IMG/VR virus record: IMGVR_UViG_3300045253_000023
Coordinates: 62,001 to 126,000 of that record
DNA length: 64,000 nt
Strand: one strand, 5' to 3'
Source: a virus
Made by a program: the position numbers and the translations under genes. The notes under the pieces were generated by a model. That model saw nothing but the letters and a program-made list of their open reading frames with translations. It did no database searches and was not told the origin of the DNA. This document shows, in pieces, positions 19,602 through 63,511 of this stretch (within the stretch, counting starts at the first letter, position 1; each line of letters begins with the position of its first letter).

Positions 19602-19684
19602 GCGCCAATAGTCGAGGGTGCCTTCTAAGCATTCATCCGTAACTGGAACTGAAAATGCGGGTTCGAATCCTGCTTGGTGCTCCA
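19602..19684 (+). tRNA. tRNA-Arg (TCT), no normal D-arm, long arm after anticodon
   Basis: Acceptor GCGCCAA/TTGGTGC with TCCA. The anticodon arm GGTGC-CTTCTAA-GCATT follows only 8 bases after the acceptor. A hairpin with a D-loop-like GTAACTGGA lies between anticodon arm and T-arm. Confidence 0.6.
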
Positions 19685-21189: not shown

Positions 21190-21264
21190 GCGCGATTGGG
21201 TCATTGGTTGATCACCACCTTGCCAAGGTGGATTAAATGGGTTCGATTCCCATATCTCGCTCCA
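21190..21264 (+). tRNA. tRNA-Gly (GCC)
   Basis: Anticodon arm CCACC-TTGCCAA-GGTGG; acceptor GCGCGAT/ATCTCGC with one mismatch; TCCA. Confidence 0.88.
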
Positions 21265-40514: not shown

Positions 40515-41095
40515 AACTTGGTCCAACAACTCGTGAAGCATTTGTCAAGGCTCTTGAGCTCACACATGATCCAAGAGACAAATTTGCCAAGACATTTCTC
40601 CGCAAGGGAGATATGGTTGGTGGTTGGGGAGAATGGACTCTTGGAGCATTCTCTGAAAGTGGTCATCTGATGGGCGCATGCATGTTGTCTGTATCCAAGC
40701 GCGAGCCACATGTGATCAATCTGCAGTTGCTTCATACCTTCGCAATGTATCGTGGTTTTGGTATTGCTTCCAAGCTCATGGCATGGGCAGTGATGTATGG
40801 TTGCGCTGTTGCCAAATACTTCCGTGTGTCATCTGAACCAGAATCCATTGAGTTCTACAAGAAGATTGGATTCTATTTCTGGGGCGAACAGAAGAGTGGT
40901 TGTGCATTGTCGATGTTTCGCTATGAAGCAGATGCCAAGTGCGCATATGATCCACATGACCCAATTATCAGTGCCGCATTGAGCTCCAAGCGTCGCGGTG
41001 GTGTTCATCAGATGTATCCAACAGAGTTTGTGACTCTCTCATACGAGCCATACAATCGCTTCCAGGATGTACCATGTCTGTCGATTACCGTCTGA
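40511..41095 (+). CDS. GNAT-family acetyltransferase of the modification cassette
   Basis: The 194-residue protein has LQLLHTFAMYRGFGIASKL (acetyl-CoA loop near residue 82) and VSSEPESIEFYKKIGFYFWG, characteristic of GNAT enzymes. Overlaps both neighbours by 4 and 22 bases, so it is co-translated with the amidoligase and the next gene. It may acylate a modified base or an intermediate. Confidence 0.75.
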   Translation: MKLGPTTREAFVKALELTHDPRDKFAKTFLRKGDMVGGWGEWTLGAFSESGHLMGACMLSVSKREPHVINLQLLHTFAMYRGFGIASKLMAWAVMYGCAVAKYFRVSSEPESIEFYKKIGFYFWGEQKSGCALSMFRYEADAKCAYDPHDPIISAALSSKRRGGVHQMYPTEFVTLSYEPYNRFQDVPCLSITV

Positions 41096-42129
41096 AAGAA
41101 AATCGCAAGCAAGCATTTGTGAAGTGGATGGTGTGGTCAATGCTCTATGAGGATTGCGACCCATCTTTGTTCATGACCAACTACCTGTTTGATCGCTTTG
41201 AAGTCAACTCAGAGCAACGACTCTGGTTGTGCTGGCTGTATGGCACCACGTACTATCTGCCAACAGCCTGGGTTATCTTCAATGAGTTCCCTGACTTTGA
41301 ACTGGTGGATCAGAAGCGTCTTGAAGATTGGAACAATGCCAACTACAAGAGGCTCCGCTATCAGACTGACACCAAGTACAACAAGGGTCATTTGCCTGCT
41401 CAGTTTGCTTCCTATCGCGCATGGATTCATTCCACTGCCAAAACACAGCGCGAGAAGTTCAAACAGTTGACCACAAACAAATGCCCAGAGAAGAACTATC
41501 AACTGGTGTTTGATGAGATCACAGGCAATCTGCACAAGTTCGGCCGATACACTGCATGGTTCTATATCCAGACCCTCAAGCACTGCGCCAAGATCAATGT
41601 TGATGCGCCCAATCTCATCCTTGAGGACTTCTCTGGCAGCAAGAGTCATCGCAATGGTCTCTGCTATGCAACTGGTCATGATGAATGGGTCAACCAGAAG
41701 CTGACCAAGGAACAAACAAACGTTCTCAATGTTGAAGCTGCCAAGATGCTCAAGGAAGTCAATCTGTACATGATGCAGCTGGACTTCACGGAGCAGGCTG
41801 ACTACTTCGCCATGGAGACCTGTTTGTGTTCCTTCAAGAAGCTGTTCCGCAAATCTCGAGGCAGGTATCTTGGATACTACCTTGACAGACAGGCTGAAGA
41901 GATCGCGAAGGTCGAGCAAGATGGTTGGAGCGGCATTTGCTGGAAACCATTATGGGATGCCCGCAATGAAACCATCAAGCGTCCTGAATTGTTGGGCGGT
42001 AATGTGGTGCCAGAGCGAATGGTCCACTTCCTAGACAATGGCTCGCTCGAAAGATTGGACTATCTGTGGCCTGAGGACAAGACCAGCACTGAGACACTCT
42101 CGTTTGATCTAACTAAATTCTCTGTATAA
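41074..42129 (+). CDS. Putative alpha-glutamyl/putrescinyl-thymine pyrophosphorylase-like protein
   Basis: The 351-residue protein has RLWLCWLYGTTYYLPTAWV near residue 49 and a helix-hairpin-helix-glycosylase-like FGRYTAWFYIQTLKHC near 157, then SHRNGLCYATGHDEW. These and the cassette (amidotransferase, amidoligase, GNAT) suggest the family that links a side chain to an activated thymine in phage DNA. The assignment rests on context plus remembered motif shape and needs a profile search. Confidence 0.5.
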   Translation: MSVDYRLKENRKQAFVKWMVWSMLYEDCDPSLFMTNYLFDRFEVNSEQRLWLCWLYGTTYYLPTAWVIFNEFPDFELVDQKRLEDWNNANYKRLRYQTDTKYNKGHLPAQFASYRAWIHSTAKTQREKFKQLTTNKCPEKNYQLVFDEITGNLHKFGRYTAWFYIQTLKHCAKINVDAPNLILEDFSGSKSHRNGLCYATGHDEWVNQKLTKEQTNVLNVEAAKMLKEVNLYMMQLDFTEQADYFAMETCLCSFKKLFRKSRGRYLGYYLDRQAEEIAKVEQDGWSGICWKPLWDARNETIKRPELLGGNVVPERMVHFLDNGSLERLDYLWPEDKTSTETLSFDLTKFSV

Positions 42130-49393: not shown

Positions 49394-49651
49394 ATGATCC
49401 GCGAACAGAAATATGTGATCATGGAGCATGAAGGTGTTGAGAAGGTCTTGACCTTCCCTCGACATCAAGAACATGCTGCTACTGCTCATCAACATCCAGG
49501 CACGCCAGTTGCCGCAGGTTTCTTCACATTGGAACTGATGTCAGATAGTTCCATTGAATGCGATGCCTATGGTGAGAGCTATTCACTCAATGGACTCAAG
49601 TCACGCGAAGGTGATGGTGAGTTGATCCTCAAACATATGGGAATGGTATGA
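49394..49651 (+). CDS. Hypothetical protein, 85 aa
   Basis: Histidine-rich central part (HQEHAATAHQHPG). Overlaps the RNA ligase start by 4 bases and is presumably co-expressed with it. Unknown. Confidence 0.6.
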   Translation: MIREQKYVIMEHEGVEKVLTFPRHQEHAATAHQHPGTPVAAGFFTLELMSDSSIECDAYGESYSLNGLKSREGDGELILKHMGMV

Positions 49652-50571
49652 CAACTGAACTCATGCGCAATCTGGATGACTTAGTGGTTCGCCGCTACGT
49701 CAATCTGCGCGTGAATCCAGAAGGACTGCGCATATACAAGTACAACAAGAATGTGTTCTTCAAGGATGTTTGGAAACAGAATCCATTGTTGCTTGAGGCG
49801 CGCGGCATTGTTCTCGACAAAGAGGGCAACATCGTTTCCTATCCATTCTCCAAGGTTTTCAATGATGGTGAGTGGAACCATACATTTGATCGTGGTGACC
49901 TAGTCTATGCCTCAACCAAGATTGATGGCTTCATGGCTGTGGTCACTTGGCACAATGGCAATTTGTTGGTCACATCCAGCGGCACCTTTGATTCCGACTA
50001 TGTCAGATATGCAAAGGAATGGTTGCAAGGTGAACGCGTGCGCAAGATGTGCGAACATCATCCTTCTACCACATTCATCTTTGAGATCGTGGACTCACGT
50101 ACATCAAAGGTGATTGATGAACATCTTGGAGCCTATCTCGTTGGTGCTCGTGAGAAGGTGCTTGGTTCAGAGCTATATTCTGAACAAAACTTGGATGACA
50201 TCTTTGTTGGTTACATGAAGCACACGTTTCAGTTCTTTCGTCCGAGTTGGAAGCAAGTTCCGTTTGCTTCAATTGTAGATGCTTGCGATCATGTCGATGG
50301 TGAGCATATTGAGGGGTATGTTTGCTACAACAACATTGGTGAATGCGTCAAGATCAAGACCCAATACTATCTTGTCCAGAAGTTCCTGTCGCGTACCAAT
50401 CGCAACATGGATGTCATCTGGACTGATCAAGCCAAGGCAATGAAATCATTGCCATATCATTTTGAGCGCATCATCAAAGAACTGCCTGAATGGCACTCTG
50501 CTGAAGAATGGCGCGCGCTTGATGAGAATGGCAAGTTGGCAACTCTTCGTGACATCCTTTCTGAGGTATAA
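49648..50571 (+). CDS. RNA ligase, T4 Rnl1 family
   Basis: Seals broken RNA ends through a lysine-AMP intermediate. The 307-residue protein has EARGIVLDKEGNIVSYPFSKVFNDGE typical of Rnl1 N-termini, motif I STKIDGFMAVV near residue 91, FIFEIVD (III) near 146, HIEGYVCY (IV) near 219 and VKIKTQYYL (V) near 234. In T4 it repairs tRNAs cut by host anticodon nucleases; here it could also join permuted tRNA halves. No polynucleotide kinase is visible in the window. Confidence 0.85.
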   Translation: MTTELMRNLDDLVVRRYVNLRVNPEGLRIYKYNKNVFFKDVWKQNPLLLEARGIVLDKEGNIVSYPFSKVFNDGEWNHTFDRGDLVYASTKIDGFMAVVTWHNGNLLVTSSGTFDSDYVRYAKEWLQGERVRKMCEHHPSTTFIFEIVDSRTSKVIDEHLGAYLVGAREKVLGSELYSEQNLDDIFVGYMKHTFQFFRPSWKQVPFASIVDACDHVDGEHIEGYVCYNNIGECVKIKTQYYLVQKFLSRTNRNMDVIWTDQAKAMKSLPYHFERIIKELPEWHSAEEWRALDENGKLATLRDILSEV

Positions 50572-58109: not shown

Positions 58110-58409
58110 ATGAAATTCAAAGCACATCTTGCGGAAGGATTCGCCAATTATCTCGGATACTCAGGTTCCGGAATGAAGTTGCCTCGTGATCGCCAGAAAG
58201 CTGGTGAAATGAATCAAGATGACGTCAAGTACATGAGCGTCGGCAAAGAAACAGACGTGTATGAGATTGGCACTGGCGACAAGAAATATGCCAAAGTGGT
58301 GTCCATTTTCTCCACGACTGGTGGCGGACATGCTGTCACTGTTCAACTTGCTGATGCCGATGGATACTTCAAAGGCAAGAAACTCACATACAAGATCGTC
58401 AAAGGATAA
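58110..58409 (+). CDS. Small protein with capsid-targeting-like N-terminus, 99 aa
   Basis: MKFKAHLAE|G matches the head-targeting pattern; the rest is a small beta-rich domain. Likely internal head protein by analogy. Confidence 0.6.
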   Translation: MKFKAHLAEGFANYLGYSGSGMKLPRDRQKAGEMNQDDVKYMSVGKETDVYEIGTGDKKYAKVVSIFSTTGGGHAVTVQLADADGYFKGKKLTYKIVKG

Positions 58410-58415
58410 TATCGC

Positions 58416-58444
58416 TTTACTTCTTCCTGAACTTCAGGTAGAAT
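58416..58444 (+). promoter_or_regulatory. Promoter
   Basis: TTTACT and TAGAAT are 17 bases apart, ahead of the NMNAT/Nudix gene. Confidence 0.8.
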
Positions 58445-58491
58445 ATACATCACAATTGAATTCACGTCATCACGATAGGGAGTCTATCAAC

Positions 58492-59568
58492 ATGAACAAC
58501 AAGCCATATGATTTGGCCGTCTACATCGGCCGTTTTCAACCCTTCCACAATGGGCATCTTCATGCCCTACTCGAAGCCCATAAGTTGGCCTCGAAAGTCC
58601 TGGTGCTCATCGGCACCAGTGAATCTCCTCGCACACCCAAGAATCCATGGACATTCCAAGAACGCGCATCCATGATCATGAATGCTGTGGAAATCAGCAA
58701 TGCGCTGGTTGGCACTGGTGATCTTATTCCAATTCCACGACGCCTGAATGACTTCATGTATGATGACACCAAATGGGTGACTCGTGTTCAACAGGAAGTT
58801 GATGATTTTATTGAACAAAATGGTGATTTGCGAACAGGCAGAGCGCCAAGGATCGTCATTGTGGGTCACGAAAAGGACGCATCCTCATACTACCTGCGCA
58901 TGTTCCCGCAATGGGAATTTGTTGACACTGGCGCAGCCCAAGAGAAACCAGTCTTGGAAGCAACCAAGATTCGACAGCTGATTTTTGAAGACAACCTGAT
59001 GTATGTTCAGTCTGTTGTCCCGCCAAATGTATACACATTCCTGAGTGCCTGGTCATCCACCACGACCTATGATGGCGTGCGTGCTGAGTATGATCACTAC
59101 AAAGAATACAAGGCCAAGTTTGCTTCCGCTCCATTTCCACCCACCTTCCTCACCGCAGATGCCTGCGTGATTCAATCTGGACACGTATTGCTGGTGCGTC
59201 GCAAGAGAGAACCAGGAAAGGGATTGTATGCGCTCCCTGGTGGTTTCGTGAATCAACATGAGACCATGGAGGATGCGGCACTGCGTGAACTCATCGAAGA
59301 AACCAACATCAAGCTGCAACCTGATGTTCTCAAGCGTTGCATTCGCTATAGTAAGGTGTTTGATGCTCCGCATCGATCATTGCGCGGTCGAACTGTCACT
59401 CAGGCATTCCTGATTCGCCTCGATGATTCCAAGCCACTGGCCAAGGTCAAGGCAGGAGACGACGCTGAGGAGGCAATGTGGGTTCCATTCAATAACGTCA
59501 TGTCAATGCGTCCAGAGATGTTCGAGGACCATTATGACATGGTGTTCCATATGATCTCAAAGGCATGA
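58492..59568 (+). CDS. Bifunctional NMN adenylyltransferase / Nudix hydrolase
   Basis: Makes NAD+ from NMN and ATP. The 358-residue protein has the N-terminal nucleotidyltransferase signature YIGRFQPFHNGHLHAL near residue 11, TSESPRTPKNPW near 45, and a C-terminal Nudix box within ALPGGFVNQHETMEDAALRE and LIEETNIKL near residue 245-273. The same fusion is known in KVP40-type phages. AGGGAG precedes the ATG. It pairs with the NAMPT gene at 60668 to form a two-step NAD+ salvage route. Confidence 0.92.
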   Translation: MNNKPYDLAVYIGRFQPFHNGHLHALLEAHKLASKVLVLIGTSESPRTPKNPWTFQERASMIMNAVEISNALVGTGDLIPIPRRLNDFMYDDTKWVTRVQQEVDDFIEQNGDLRTGRAPRIVIVGHEKDASSYYLRMFPQWEFVDTGAAQEKPVLEATKIRQLIFEDNLMYVQSVVPPNVYTFLSAWSSTTTYDGVRAEYDHYKEYKAKFASAPFPPTFLTADACVIQSGHVLLVRRKREPGKGLYALPGGFVNQHETMEDAALRELIEETNIKLQPDVLKRCIRYSKVFDAPHRSLRGRTVTQAFLIRLDDSKPLAKVKAGDDAEEAMWVPFNNVMSMRPEMFEDHYDMVFHMISKA

Positions 59569-60455: not shown

Positions 60456-60671
60456 ATGGGTGTTCATGCACATAATGGCACAATGCCTGGAGCAGTGACG
60501 CCGATCTGTAACAACTGCATGATTGCTCTTTGTTTTGACATTGGTGAACAAGAATACAAGGAAGACAAAGAGTTTTGGGACAATTGGGTCTGTCGCGACT
60601 GTAATGGCGGCGAACCCTTATCGCGCCATGTATGGCGTCAACAACACATACAAGAAGGAGTTTCTGTATGA
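60456..60671 (+). CDS. Zinc-ribbon protein, 71 aa
   Basis: CNNC near residue 18 and CRDC near 46 make a zinc ribbon. Overlaps the NAMPT start by 4 bases. Confidence 0.6.
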   Translation: MGVHAHNGTMPGAVTPICNNCMIALCFDIGEQEYKEDKEFWDNWVCRDCNGGEPLSRHVWRQQHIQEGVSV

Positions 60672-62104
60672 CAAATCGCAATCCAATTCTATCCACCGAC
60701 AGCTACAAGTTTTCACATGACAAACAATATCCGGAAGGCACTGAAGACATCTATGCCTATCTGAGCGCACGCGGGAGCCGCGTTGCAGGCTGCAATGAAG
60801 TCGTGATGTTTGGGCTTCAACCCTGGATTCATGATCGCATGTGCACTCCAGTGACGCGCAAGCATGTTGATGATGCGCGCATGTTTTGTATTGCTCATGG
60901 CGTCCCATTCAACTATGAAGGCTGGAAGTACATTGTTGAGAAGCACAATGGTTTCCTGCCTGTTGAGATTCGCGCTGTGCCTGAAGGCACCGTTGTGCCA
61001 GTTGGTATGCCAATGGTCACTGTTCATGCCACTGATCCAAAATGCGCATGGTTGACCTGCTACCTGGAAACTGACATCATGCGCGCGGTCTGGTATGGTT
61101 CGACCGTTGCCACCATTTCGCGTCATTGCAAGAAGATCATCAAGAGATATCTGGACATCACTGCTGACAATCCGGAGCAGGAAATCAGCTTCAAGCTGCA
61201 TGACTTCGGCTTCCGTGGTGTCTCGTCAACGGAATCAGCGGAGATTGGCGGCGCGGCGCACCTGATCAACTTCATGGGCACTGACACCGTTGGTGGTATA
61301 ACGCACGCAATGGAATACTATGCTGCGGATGTTTGTGGGTTCTCCATTCCCGCATCTGAACACTCCACAATGACTTCCTGGGGTCGTGACAACGAAATCA
61401 AGGCATACTGGAACATGTTGGAGCAGTATGCTGGTCAAGGCAAAACATTTGCCATGGTCATTGATTCCTACAACTGGCGCGAAGCAGTCGAGAAGCTGTA
61501 CAACAGCGGATTCTTCGATGAGGTCAAGGCGCGTGGTGCCACCGTTGTGCTCCGTCCCGACTCTGGTGATCCAACCAAGGTGCCTGTTGAACTGATTGGG
61601 CAGCTGATGTTGCTGCTTGGATATGACCGAAATGGCAAGGGATACAAGGTTCTCCCTTCTCATGTTCGAGTCATCCAGGGAGATGGCATCACCTTTGAAT
61701 CGCTGGAACAGATTCTGATCAAGATGGTGCATCATGGATTCAGCACATCGAACATTGCATTTGGTATGGGTGCTGGTCTGTTGCAGAAGTGTGATCGTGA
61801 CACATTCAAGTTTGCCATGAAGTGCTCGGCAATTCAACACTTCAATGGTTTCTGGAGTGATGTGTTCAAAGACCCAATTGATGCTCCTGACAAGAAAAGC
61901 CTGCGCGGTCGAGTGACCACAATCAAGCATGTGGATGGCACCATGAGTGTCACCACACTGGACAAGCTGCGCGAAGAGCATCGCATCCAGATGACTGAAG
62001 AAGGCGACATGAACATGCTGAACGTGGTCTATGTGTTGGATCACAATGGAATGCGTGTCAAGTTCACCAACTTTGAGGCTATTCGTGCTCGCGCTGCCGT
62101 CTGA
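60668..62104 (+). CDS. nadV: Nicotinamide phosphoribosyltransferase
   Basis: Converts nicotinamide and PRPP to NMN. The 478-residue protein has the NAMPT opening NPILSTDSYKFSHDKQYP, the substrate-binding HDFGFRGVSS near residue 178, VIDSYNWREAV near 260, VLRPDSGDP near 290 and FGMGAGLLQK near 370. AAGGAG precedes the ATG. With the NMNAT/Nudix enzyme it rebuilds NAD+ from nicotinamide, a route known to protect phages against NAD-depleting defences. Confidence 0.93.
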   Translation: MTNRNPILSTDSYKFSHDKQYPEGTEDIYAYLSARGSRVAGCNEVVMFGLQPWIHDRMCTPVTRKHVDDARMFCIAHGVPFNYEGWKYIVEKHNGFLPVEIRAVPEGTVVPVGMPMVTVHATDPKCAWLTCYLETDIMRAVWYGSTVATISRHCKKIIKRYLDITADNPEQEISFKLHDFGFRGVSSTESAEIGGAAHLINFMGTDTVGGITHAMEYYAADVCGFSIPASEHSTMTSWGRDNEIKAYWNMLEQYAGQGKTFAMVIDSYNWREAVEKLYNSGFFDEVKARGATVVLRPDSGDPTKVPVELIGQLMLLLGYDRNGKGYKVLPSHVRVIQGDGITFESLEQILIKMVHHGFSTSNIAFGMGAGLLQKCDRDTFKFAMKCSAIQHFNGFWSDVFKDPIDAPDKKSLRGRVTTIKHVDGTMSVTTLDKLREEHRIQMTEEGDMNMLNVVYVLDHNGMRVKFTNFEAIRARAAV

Positions 62105-62388: not shown

Positions 62389-62500
62389 CCCATGCTATGG
62401 GTAATTGTTGGTGTCCCAACAGGCCGTCATTGCAAGATGAGTGTATGAAGCGAGCCGAAAGGTTCTTTGGACGCGGGTTCGATTCCCGCCATCTCCACCA
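62389..62500 (+). ncRNA. ssrA: tmRNA acceptor piece (permuted gene, upstream half)
   Basis: Ends with GGACGCGGGTTCGATTCCCG and then CCATCTCCACCA, the canonical tmRNA T-arm, acceptor 3' strand and CCA. Preceding hairpins CCCATgctATGGG and TGTTGG/CCAACA may belong to the acceptor-piece pseudoknot. CATCTCC (62490) pairs with GGGGATG of the downstream piece, so the gene is circularly permuted. The 5' limit is approximate. Confidence 0.85.
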
Positions 62501-62501
62501 A

Positions 62502-62611
62502 AATGTATTGTGGCGACCATGGGTTCAATTCCCTTAACTCTTAGGCCGAGTGGAAGCGAATGAGGAAAAGAGCTTAGCGGCTCGACAGGTTCAAATCCTG
62601 CTCAGTACATT
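62502..62611 (+). other. Folded tRNA-like insert between tmRNA pieces
   Basis: AATGTATTG (62502) pairs with CAGTACATT (62603). Inside are two T-arm-like hairpins (ATGGG-TTCAATT-CCC and CAGG-TTCAAAT-CCTG) and GGCCGAGTGG, which resembles a class II tRNA D-arm. It is removed if the tmRNA matures as two pieces. Confidence 0.5.
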
Positions 62612-62616
62612 TTGAT

Positions 62617-62780
62617 GGGGATGCCCAGGTTTCGACAGGGGACATGACTAGGCAAGTGGACACTCCGCCGATGTTACTGGCGATTAAAGTGAAACAAAAC
62701 TCCAAATGCAGCTAACGATGCTGTTTTCGACCAGTCTTCGAACGTTCTTCAGTTCCGCAAGGCTGCTTGATATCAACTGT
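62617..62780 (+). ncRNA. ssrA: tmRNA coding piece (permuted gene, downstream half)
   Basis: Starts GGGGATG then GGTTTCGACAGGGG, the conserved tmRNA 5' end. The tag frame starts at the GCA at 62708, with the expected A at -4, and reads AANDAVFDQSSNVLQFRKAA to a TGA at 62768-62770. It begins AND-like and ends in AA as proteolysis tags do, though RKAA replaces the usual LAA. Together with the acceptor piece it forms a trans-translation RNA that rescues stalled ribosomes. Confidence 0.85.
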
Positions 62781-62840
62781 GATCCCGAGTGGATTCCTCA
62801 ACGGGATATGGAAGGGCAGGGCAACCTGCCCTTTCTTTGT
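62781..62840 (+). terminator. Hairpins and terminator after tmRNA
   Basis: ATCCCG/CGGGAT near 62782 is followed by GGGCAGG-gcaa-CCTGCCC and TTTCTTT (62814-62838), a typical intrinsic terminator. Confidence 0.85.
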
Positions 62841-62908
62841 ATGTTGATCATGCTATTACAATGAATGTCTTGGTTGAGCGTTTGTCGCCGACAATTCAAA
62901 GGAAACTC

Positions 62909-63511
62909 ATGAAGACCAAAGGTCAGATTTTGTATACAGTGATGGACTTCACACTCCGCACCTTGTTATCGGCGCTAATGGCGCTCTTGTTCATTCTACT
63001 CGCAGTCAAAGCAGCAGAATCTCGTCATCCAGAAACATTTGTCAGCGTGGAGCTATCTGTTCCAGCATACAAGGGAGTGCAACACTCCTTTGCTGACATT
63101 GAGGATATGGCGCGCAACATTTACTATGAGAGCAGAGGCCAACCTGACTTGGGGCAAGTGGCCGTCGCACATGTTGTACTAAATAGATTGCGAGCAGGAG
63201 TGTTTGCGAACACTGTTCATGGCGTGATCTATCAGCGCCTGCCTGTTTGTCAATTCTCATGGGTGTGCCAACCACGCTATCCAATCCACGACCAAGTGGC
63301 ATGGACCAAAGCAATGGTGATTGCACAGAACGTGCTTGAAGGCAACATTGCAGACCCAACTTCTGGGTCCTTGTACTTCCACGTCACAACCCTTGGGCTC
63401 TCTTCACAAGACGACAAGATCATTTGCATCAAGGATCATGTCTTCTACAACAAGAAGCCAATTGTATATGCAAAAGACAACAACAGAACAACTCCTACAC
63501 GACGCATTTGA
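62909..63511 (+). CDS. SleB-type cell-wall hydrolase (probable endolysin with signal anchor)
   Basis: Degrades peptidoglycan for lysis. IEDMARNIYYESRGQPDLGQ near residue 66 carries the catalytic glutamate of the SleB/hydrolase-2 family, followed by VAHVVLNRLRAG and CQFSWVC. An N-terminal hydrophobic segment (LLSALMALLFILLAVKAA) suggests a signal-anchor endolysin. AAAGGAAA supports the ATG at 62909; an earlier ATG at 62861 is possible. Confidence 0.82.
   Translation: MKTKGQILYTVMDFTLRTLLSALMALLFILLAVKAAESRHPETFVSVELSVPAYKGVQHSFADIEDMARNIYYESRGQPDLGQVAVAHVVLNRLRAGVFANTVHGVIYQRLPVCQFSWVCQPRYPIHDQVAWTKAMVIAQNVLEGNIADPTSGSLYFHVTTLGLSSQDDKIICIKDHVFYNKKPIVYAKDNNRTTPTRRI

What the first reader, a model, noticed from the sequence alone, without database searches (positions are those of the whole stretch)
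62389..62838. Phage-encoded circularly permuted (two-piece) tmRNA
The acceptor piece (T-arm, CATCTCC, ACCA, ending 62500) lies upstream of the coding piece (GGGGATG at 62617, tag frame 62708-62770). The two acceptor strands pair 7 of 7 with one G-U, and both ends match tmRNA hallmarks. Permuted tmRNA is known in alphaproteobacteria and some other bacterial lineages; a phage copy with its own 20-codon tag ending RKAA would retag stalled proteins in the infected cell with a phage-specific signal.
Basis: partly seen in the sequence, partly recalled or inferred. Interest (0 to 1): 0.92.

Follow-up and report, generated by a model that had tools for sequence, protein, structure and literature searches.

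The report
Phage two-piece (permuted) tmRNA gene
This bacterial virus carries a complete gene for a two-piece, rearranged ribosome-rescue RNA (tmRNA), a kind already known in other phages; its removable middle segment forms a conserved hairpin that in this phage also holds tRNA-like scraps.

Summary
ARAGORN calls a permuted tmRNA at 62408-62861. Rfam tmRNA_permuted (RF04321) matches end to end at 102 bits against a cut-off of 47. The structured beta_tmRNA model also aligns end to end, but at 68 bits against a cut-off of 84. The acceptor stem has the G3-U70 alanine mark, CCA is encoded, the tag is AANDAVFDQSSNVLQFRKAA, and a terminator follows. The window lies in a 161.6-kb virus record.

It is a new member of a known kind: two-piece tmRNAs are published in phages (PMC9004378). 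ARAGORN also calls them permuted in Stenotrophomonas and Xanthomonas phages and in many IMG/VR contigs.

It also holds two tRNA T-loop motifs (0 of 5000 shuffles), probably tRNA remnants. The tag ending KAA is unique among 132 phage tags. No SmpB gene was found. Expression and function are untested.

The parts
62397..62500 (+). acceptor piece (3' tRNA-like part): upstream extension, P2 3' strand, T-arm, acceptor 3' strand CATCTCC, encoded ACCA; 5' end approximate
   Evidence: RF01850 and RF04321 alignments; ARAGORN 3' tRNA domain
62471..62500 (+). T-arm (GCGGG TTCGATT CCCGC), acceptor 3' strand 62490-62496, A73 62497, CCA 62498-62500
   Evidence: sequence; near-identical in other phage permuted tmRNAs
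62501..62616 (+). intervening segment (116 nt), removed from the mature RNA by inference
   Evidence: lies between the encoded CCA and G1; IVS definition from PMC11915505
62499..62614 (+). IVS closing helix: 62499-62510 pairs with 62603-62614 (12 contiguous bp, one G-U), stacked on the acceptor stem through A73-U(-1) and a C74 x A(-2) mismatch
   Evidence: fold; covariation in other phages and bacteria
62522..62537 (+). first tRNA T-arm-like remnant in the IVS loop (GGGTTCAATTCCC)
   Evidence: T-loop motif test, 2 motifs in 0 of 5000 shuffles; resembles the T-arm of this phage's tRNA-Gly at 21237-21258
62584..62600 (+). second tRNA T-arm-like remnant (CAGGTTCAAATCCTG)
   Evidence: weak tRNA-Sec model match 62504-62609, 18 bits, below gathering 47
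62617..62840 (+). coding piece: acceptor 5' strand GGGGATG 62617-62623, GGTTTCGAC D-loop-like segment, P2 5' strand, PK1 region, tag frame, 3' part up to the terminator; 3' end approximate
62708..62770 (+). tag reading frame AANDAVFDQSSNVLQFRKAA + TGA, resume codon GCA at 62708
62810..62837 (+). intrinsic terminator-like hairpin with T-rich tail
   Evidence: 11 bp, 7 G-C; corresponds to the 3' hairpin of the beta_tmRNA model

Best explanation
This is a complete, probably working permuted (two-piece) tmRNA gene of betaproteobacterial type in a tailed phage. Shown from sequence: the gene order, the alanine-type acceptor stem with encoded CCA, the tag frame, the terminator, and an intervening helix supported by covariation in relatives. 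Inferred: one transcript ending at 62837-62840 folds so that the intervening segment forms a long hairpin on the acceptor stem. Host enzymes (an endonuclease cutting the helix or loop, then RNase P at G1 and 3' trimming to CCA) remove that segment and leave two RNAs held together by the acceptor stem and P2. Host AlaRS charges it and host SmpB/EF-Tu deliver it. During infection it adds to or replaces host tmRNA, frees ribosomes stalled on cut or truncated mRNAs, and adds the phage's 20-residue tag. It would belong to the same translation-takeover kit as the 37 tRNA genes that ARAGORN calls in this window.
For: RF04321 102 bits end to end and ARAGORN. beta_tmRNA model aligned over its whole length 62397-62836 at 68 bits, E 1.5e-20 in a 601-base search, although below its gathering score of 84. 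G3-U70 and ACCA. Tag AAND...AA. Terminator. IVS helix in register: 0.82 paired over columns +1..+10 in 69 non-redundant phage sequences against 0.40-0.51 in shifted registers and 0.48 (sd 0.017) with partners swapped; also 0.87 (betaproteobacterial/Stenotrophomonas genes) and 0.72 (alpha-type genes) over +1..+5 in bacterial chromosomes. Closest tmRNA pieces are in phages: L012 and Stenotrophomonas phage DLP_6. Own SmpB, SspB and ClpP not found in the record, so host partners are assumed.
Against: No RNA evidence of transcription or cutting. beta_tmRNA stays under its curated cut-off (68 vs 84). The tag ends KAA instead of LAA/IAA/MAA, so proteolysis may be weakened. No close relative of this allele was found (hits reach 59-67 nt at 88-93% in the acceptor piece), so selection on the tag cannot be measured.
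Confidence: 0.85

Rival explanations
1. Decoy or inhibitor: the RNA is charged and binds SmpB but its main effect is to compete with host tmRNA, as reported for a tRNA-like-domain-only molecule like that of mycobacteriophage DS6A.
For: A phage tmRNA-like RNA of that kind strongly inhibits tmRNA (PMC4131195; PMC11915505). The tag's KAA end is unique among 132 phage tags.
Against: DS6A lacks the tag region; here the resume region (AAAUGCAGCUAACGAU), tag frame and stop are intact, which a decoy would not need.
Confidence: 0.08
2. Decaying copy picked up from a host or another phage, not functional; the tRNA scraps in the intervening segment are part of the decay.
For: tRNA debris in the IVS, odd tag end, beta_tmRNA under its gathering score.
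Against: The functional landmarks checked are intact and the IVS closing helix is perfect over 12 bp. In relatives the helix is kept by compensating changes although the sequence turns over, so turnover inside the loop is normal for this gene.
Confidence: 0.06
3. Chance resemblance or only a tRNA-like fragment.
For: None beyond the general T-arm false positives of tRNA searches.
Against: E 9.5e-19, two independent programs, both pieces and tag present.
Confidence: 0.01

Closest known systems
Permuted tmRNA, Rfam RF04321 / beta_tmRNA RF01850 (betaproteobacterial two-piece tmRNA)
   Same: gene order acceptor piece - intervening segment - coding piece, G3-U70 acceptor stem, T-arm, P2, PK1 region, tag frame, terminal hairpin
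   Different: carried by a phage; intervening segment 116 nt (medians 33 and 31 in the bacterial sets); tag 20 residues ending KAA; scores below the RF01850 gathering score
tmRNA of Stenotrophomonas phages DLP_6, Mendera, Moby, Marzo, IME-SM1 and Xanthomonas phage X1
   Same: phage-borne; acceptor piece about 88-90% identical over 58-67 nt; ARAGORN calls those read here permuted, tags VAANDDSYTVRIAA, ANDDSFAPMAIAA, VAANDADYSVARYA; IVS closes as the same kind of helix
   Different: IVS length 31-126 nt with unrelated sequence; tags end IAA or RYA, not KAA
Two-piece ssrA of Methylophilales phage Melnitz (PMC9004378)
   Same: phage-encoded two-piece tmRNA
   Different: alphaproteobacterial type by the authors' tree and linked to a glutamine riboswitch; no riboswitch family reached its gathering score in this window
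Permuted tmRNA GCA-2688965 sp002688965.2 with an intact tRNA-Ala inside the intervening sequence (PMC11915505)
   Same: tRNA material inside the intervening segment
   Different: there an intact high-scoring tRNA, described as a unique feature; here only remnants (18 bits), in a phage

Membership tests
permuted two-piece tmRNA | acceptor piece upstream of coding piece, matching a permuted covariance model above its curated score | tested here: met
   RF04321 102 bits vs 47
permuted two-piece tmRNA | 7-bp acceptor stem with G3-U70 (alanine identity) and CCA position | tested here: met
   GGGGATG 62617-62623 / CATCTCC 62490-62496, ACCA 62497-62500
permuted two-piece tmRNA | tag frame with resume codon and stop | tested here: met
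   GCA at 62708 ... TGA 62768-62770
permuted two-piece tmRNA | transcript is cut into two RNAs that stay paired | not testable with these tools
   needs Northern blot, primer extension or RNA-seq from infected cells
permuted two-piece tmRNA | works with SmpB in trans-translation | not testable with these tools
   no SmpB gene found in the 161,561-base record; host SmpB would have to serve
betaproteobacterial subtype RF01850 | match above the family's curated score | tested here: not met
   full-length alignment but 68.3 vs 84 bits; so beta-like in architecture, not filed as a member of that Rfam family
tRNA gene inside the intervening segment | tRNA model score above cut-off | tested here: not met
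   best 18 bits (tRNA-Sec, cut-off 47); ARAGORN at default settings finds none, and its relaxed (-ps50) hits occur about 200 times in 1000 shuffles

The most novel reading that the evidence does not exclude
The intervening segment of permuted pre-tmRNA is an evolved processing cassette: a covarying helix stacked on the acceptor stem with a near-invariant UGAU leader facing ACCA (C74 x A(-2) mismatch). It keeps the two halves together and hides CCA and the RNase P site until a double-strand cut opens the hairpin, and tRNA-like pieces lodged in the loop, as in this phage, recruit tRNA-processing enzymes.
Probability: 0.12. Interest if true: 0.6.

Novelty: new member of a known kind. Interest (0 to 1): 0.35.

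Why it matters
It adds a clear, well-scoring example of a phage-borne two-piece tmRNA. The comparison shows that such genes are widespread in phages and share a conserved intervening hairpin that the curated RF04321 model shows without base pairs. That gives a concrete, testable idea about how the two pieces are cut apart, which a review in the held library still states only as probable (RNase P and tRNase Z, PMC3985003). The KAA-ending tag is a natural test of how much the last residues of the tag matter to the host proteases.

Tried and rejected
A complete tRNA in the intervening segment: rejected (best 18 bits; relaxed ARAGORN gives about 200 hits in 1000 shuffles). A phage SmpB, SspB, ClpP or RNase III: none found in the record. 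Linkage of tmRNA with the upstream NAMPT gene as a conserved pair: of 24 viral NAMPT relatives with flanks only one has a tmRNA, and that one is of the standard form; DLP_6 has NAMPT about 2 kb upstream. A sigma-70 promoter directly upstream: none convincing. Primary papers on two-piece tmRNA (Keiler 2000, Williams 2002, Gaudin 2002, Sharkady and Williams 2004) are not in the library, so I could not check whether the intervening helix was already described there; text searches in the library turned up no such description. Three pattern scans failed for syntax.

Full report
What is there. The region holds a complete permuted tmRNA gene on the + strand. ARAGORN reports tmRNA* at 62408-62861. Rfam 15 RF04321 matches model positions 1-213 of 213 at 62439-62770 with 102 bits, gathering score 47, E 9.5e-19. 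The structured model RF01850 (beta_tmRNA) aligns end to end at 62397-62836 with 68.3 bits, E 1.5e-20 for a 601-base search, but under its gathering score of 84. The one G-U in the acceptor stem is G3-U70, the established alanine identity pair (general knowledge). The window is bases 62001-126000 of a 161,561-base virus record.

Surroundings. Upstream is a nicotinamide phosphoribosyltransferase gene (60632-62104; phrog_448, PF04095/PF18127) and a short 80-codon ORF. Downstream is a cell wall hydrolase (PF07486, phage 'endolysin' profiles) inside ORF 62789-63511; that open frame begins within the 3' end of the tmRNA gene, so its true start is probably later. The gene lies about 23 kb from the tRNA cluster of this phage (37 tRNAs by ARAGORN at 13.5-39 kb). 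An 11-bp hairpin with a T-rich tail at 62810-62837 would end the transcript. I found no SmpB, SspB, ClpP or RNase III in the record (the record may be incomplete).

The intervening segment. The 116 nt between CCA and G1 fold back on the acceptor stem (z -2.5): A73 pairs with U(-1), C74 faces A(-2), then 12 contiguous pairs run from C75-G(-3) to 62510/62603, one of them G-U. I collected IVS sequences from IMG/VR and bacterial genomes and located the pieces with ARAGORN. In 69 phage IVSs less than 75% identical in the two arms, columns +1 to +10 are paired in 82% of cells in this register, 40-51% in registers shifted by 1-4, and 48% (sd 1.7, maximum 53% in 1000 trials) when leaders are swapped among sequences. 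Columns change through AU, UA, GC and CG, so the pairing and not the sequence is kept. The leader UGAU facing ACCA is nearly invariant in phages, with the C74 x A(-2) mismatch in 171 of 194. The helix is also there in betaproteobacterial genes (0.87 against 0.32-0.52 in shifted registers) and alpha-type genes (0.72 against 0.31-0.53). IVS length: median 31 in alpha-type genes, 33 in the beta set (selected for 25-55) and 73 in phages found without a length limit (11 sequences that passed the filter). The RF04321 consensus carries no pair inside this segment (alignment), and its authors state that it contains only tRNA-domain pairs (PMC11915505).

tRNA-like scraps. The loop of this IVS holds two T-loop motifs (GTTCRANTC), never reached in 5000 dinucleotide shuffles. 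All 194 phage IVSs hold 6 such motifs in 5 sequences against 0.28 expected; some of these sequences are related to each other. No intact tRNA is present: best Rfam match 18 bits, and relaxed ARAGORN hits are not informative because about 200 appear in 1000 shuffles. One permuted tmRNA with an intact tRNA-Ala in its IVS is published (PMC11915505). The simplest reading is that a loop free of constraint collects pieces of neighbouring tRNA genes. Recruitment of tRNA enzymes is possible but unsupported.

The tag. AANDAVFDQSSNVLQFRKAA starts like the E. coli tag (AAND) and ends AA, but with K at the third-last position. Of 132 unique tags called by ARAGORN in the phage set, 79 end LAA, 14 IAA, 13 MAA and only this one KAA. 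In E. coli the last residues LAA bind ClpX (general knowledge), so degradation may be altered; this is inference.

How it most likely works. A host-like permuted tmRNA: transcription up to the terminator, folding, cutting-out of the IVS hairpin, RNase P and 3' trimming, two RNAs held by the acceptor stem and P2, charging with alanine, rescue of stalled ribosomes with host SmpB, tagging with the phage tag. Steps after folding are inferred. RNase P and tRNase Z are the enzymes proposed in a review (PMC3985003). The helix makes a first double-strand cut attractive, because leader pairing would hide CCA, but nothing here shows which enzyme does it.

Known or new. Phage two-piece tmRNAs are published: Melnitz and 53 of 133 unique phage tmRNA structures (PMC9004378). 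Stenotrophomonas phages have annotated tmRNA genes that ARAGORN calls permuted. So this is a new member of a known kind. The covarying intervening helix may be undescribed, but the primary two-piece papers were not available to me, so I make no claim of priority.

Noticed in passing
58261-59568 and 60632-62104: A cytidylyltransferase-NUDIX protein (NMNAT-like, phrog_395) lies just upstream of nicotinamide phosphoribosyltransferase: a two-gene NAD+ salvage set such as phages use against NAD-depleting defences (the NARP2 name is from memory; not tested).
   Followed up: partly
L359 1480-1740 (Stenotrophomonas rhizophila) and L358 (Stenotrophomonas sp. VV52): Two Stenotrophomonas chromosomes carry a strong permuted tmRNA (128-138 bits) plus a second weak RF04321 match that may be the standard ssrA; the S. 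rhizophila permuted copy has tag ANADYYDQDEEVILRVA.
   Followed up: partly
L419 (genome G203): An alpha-type permuted tmRNA whose 77-nt IVS also looks tRNA-like (GGAAGGTCGAATCCCAAGG); the same genome has a second permuted tmRNA (L428).
   Followed up: no
L147, L209, L222, L180, L352: Other phage IVSs with a T-loop motif; L352 has a perfect 5-bp T-stem (GAAGG TTCGAAC CCTTC).
   Followed up: partly
13562-38923: 37 tRNA genes by ARAGORN plus further matches by Rfam at 19602, 20705 and 32235; none called as tRNA-Ser or tRNA-Tyr by ARAGORN.
   Followed up: no
49648-50571: T4 RnlA-like RNA ligase (PF09511), possibly for tRNA repair.
   Followed up: no
41074-42129: Amino acid:DNA transferase (PF18724 ADDT), which suggests hypermodified phage DNA.
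   Followed up: no
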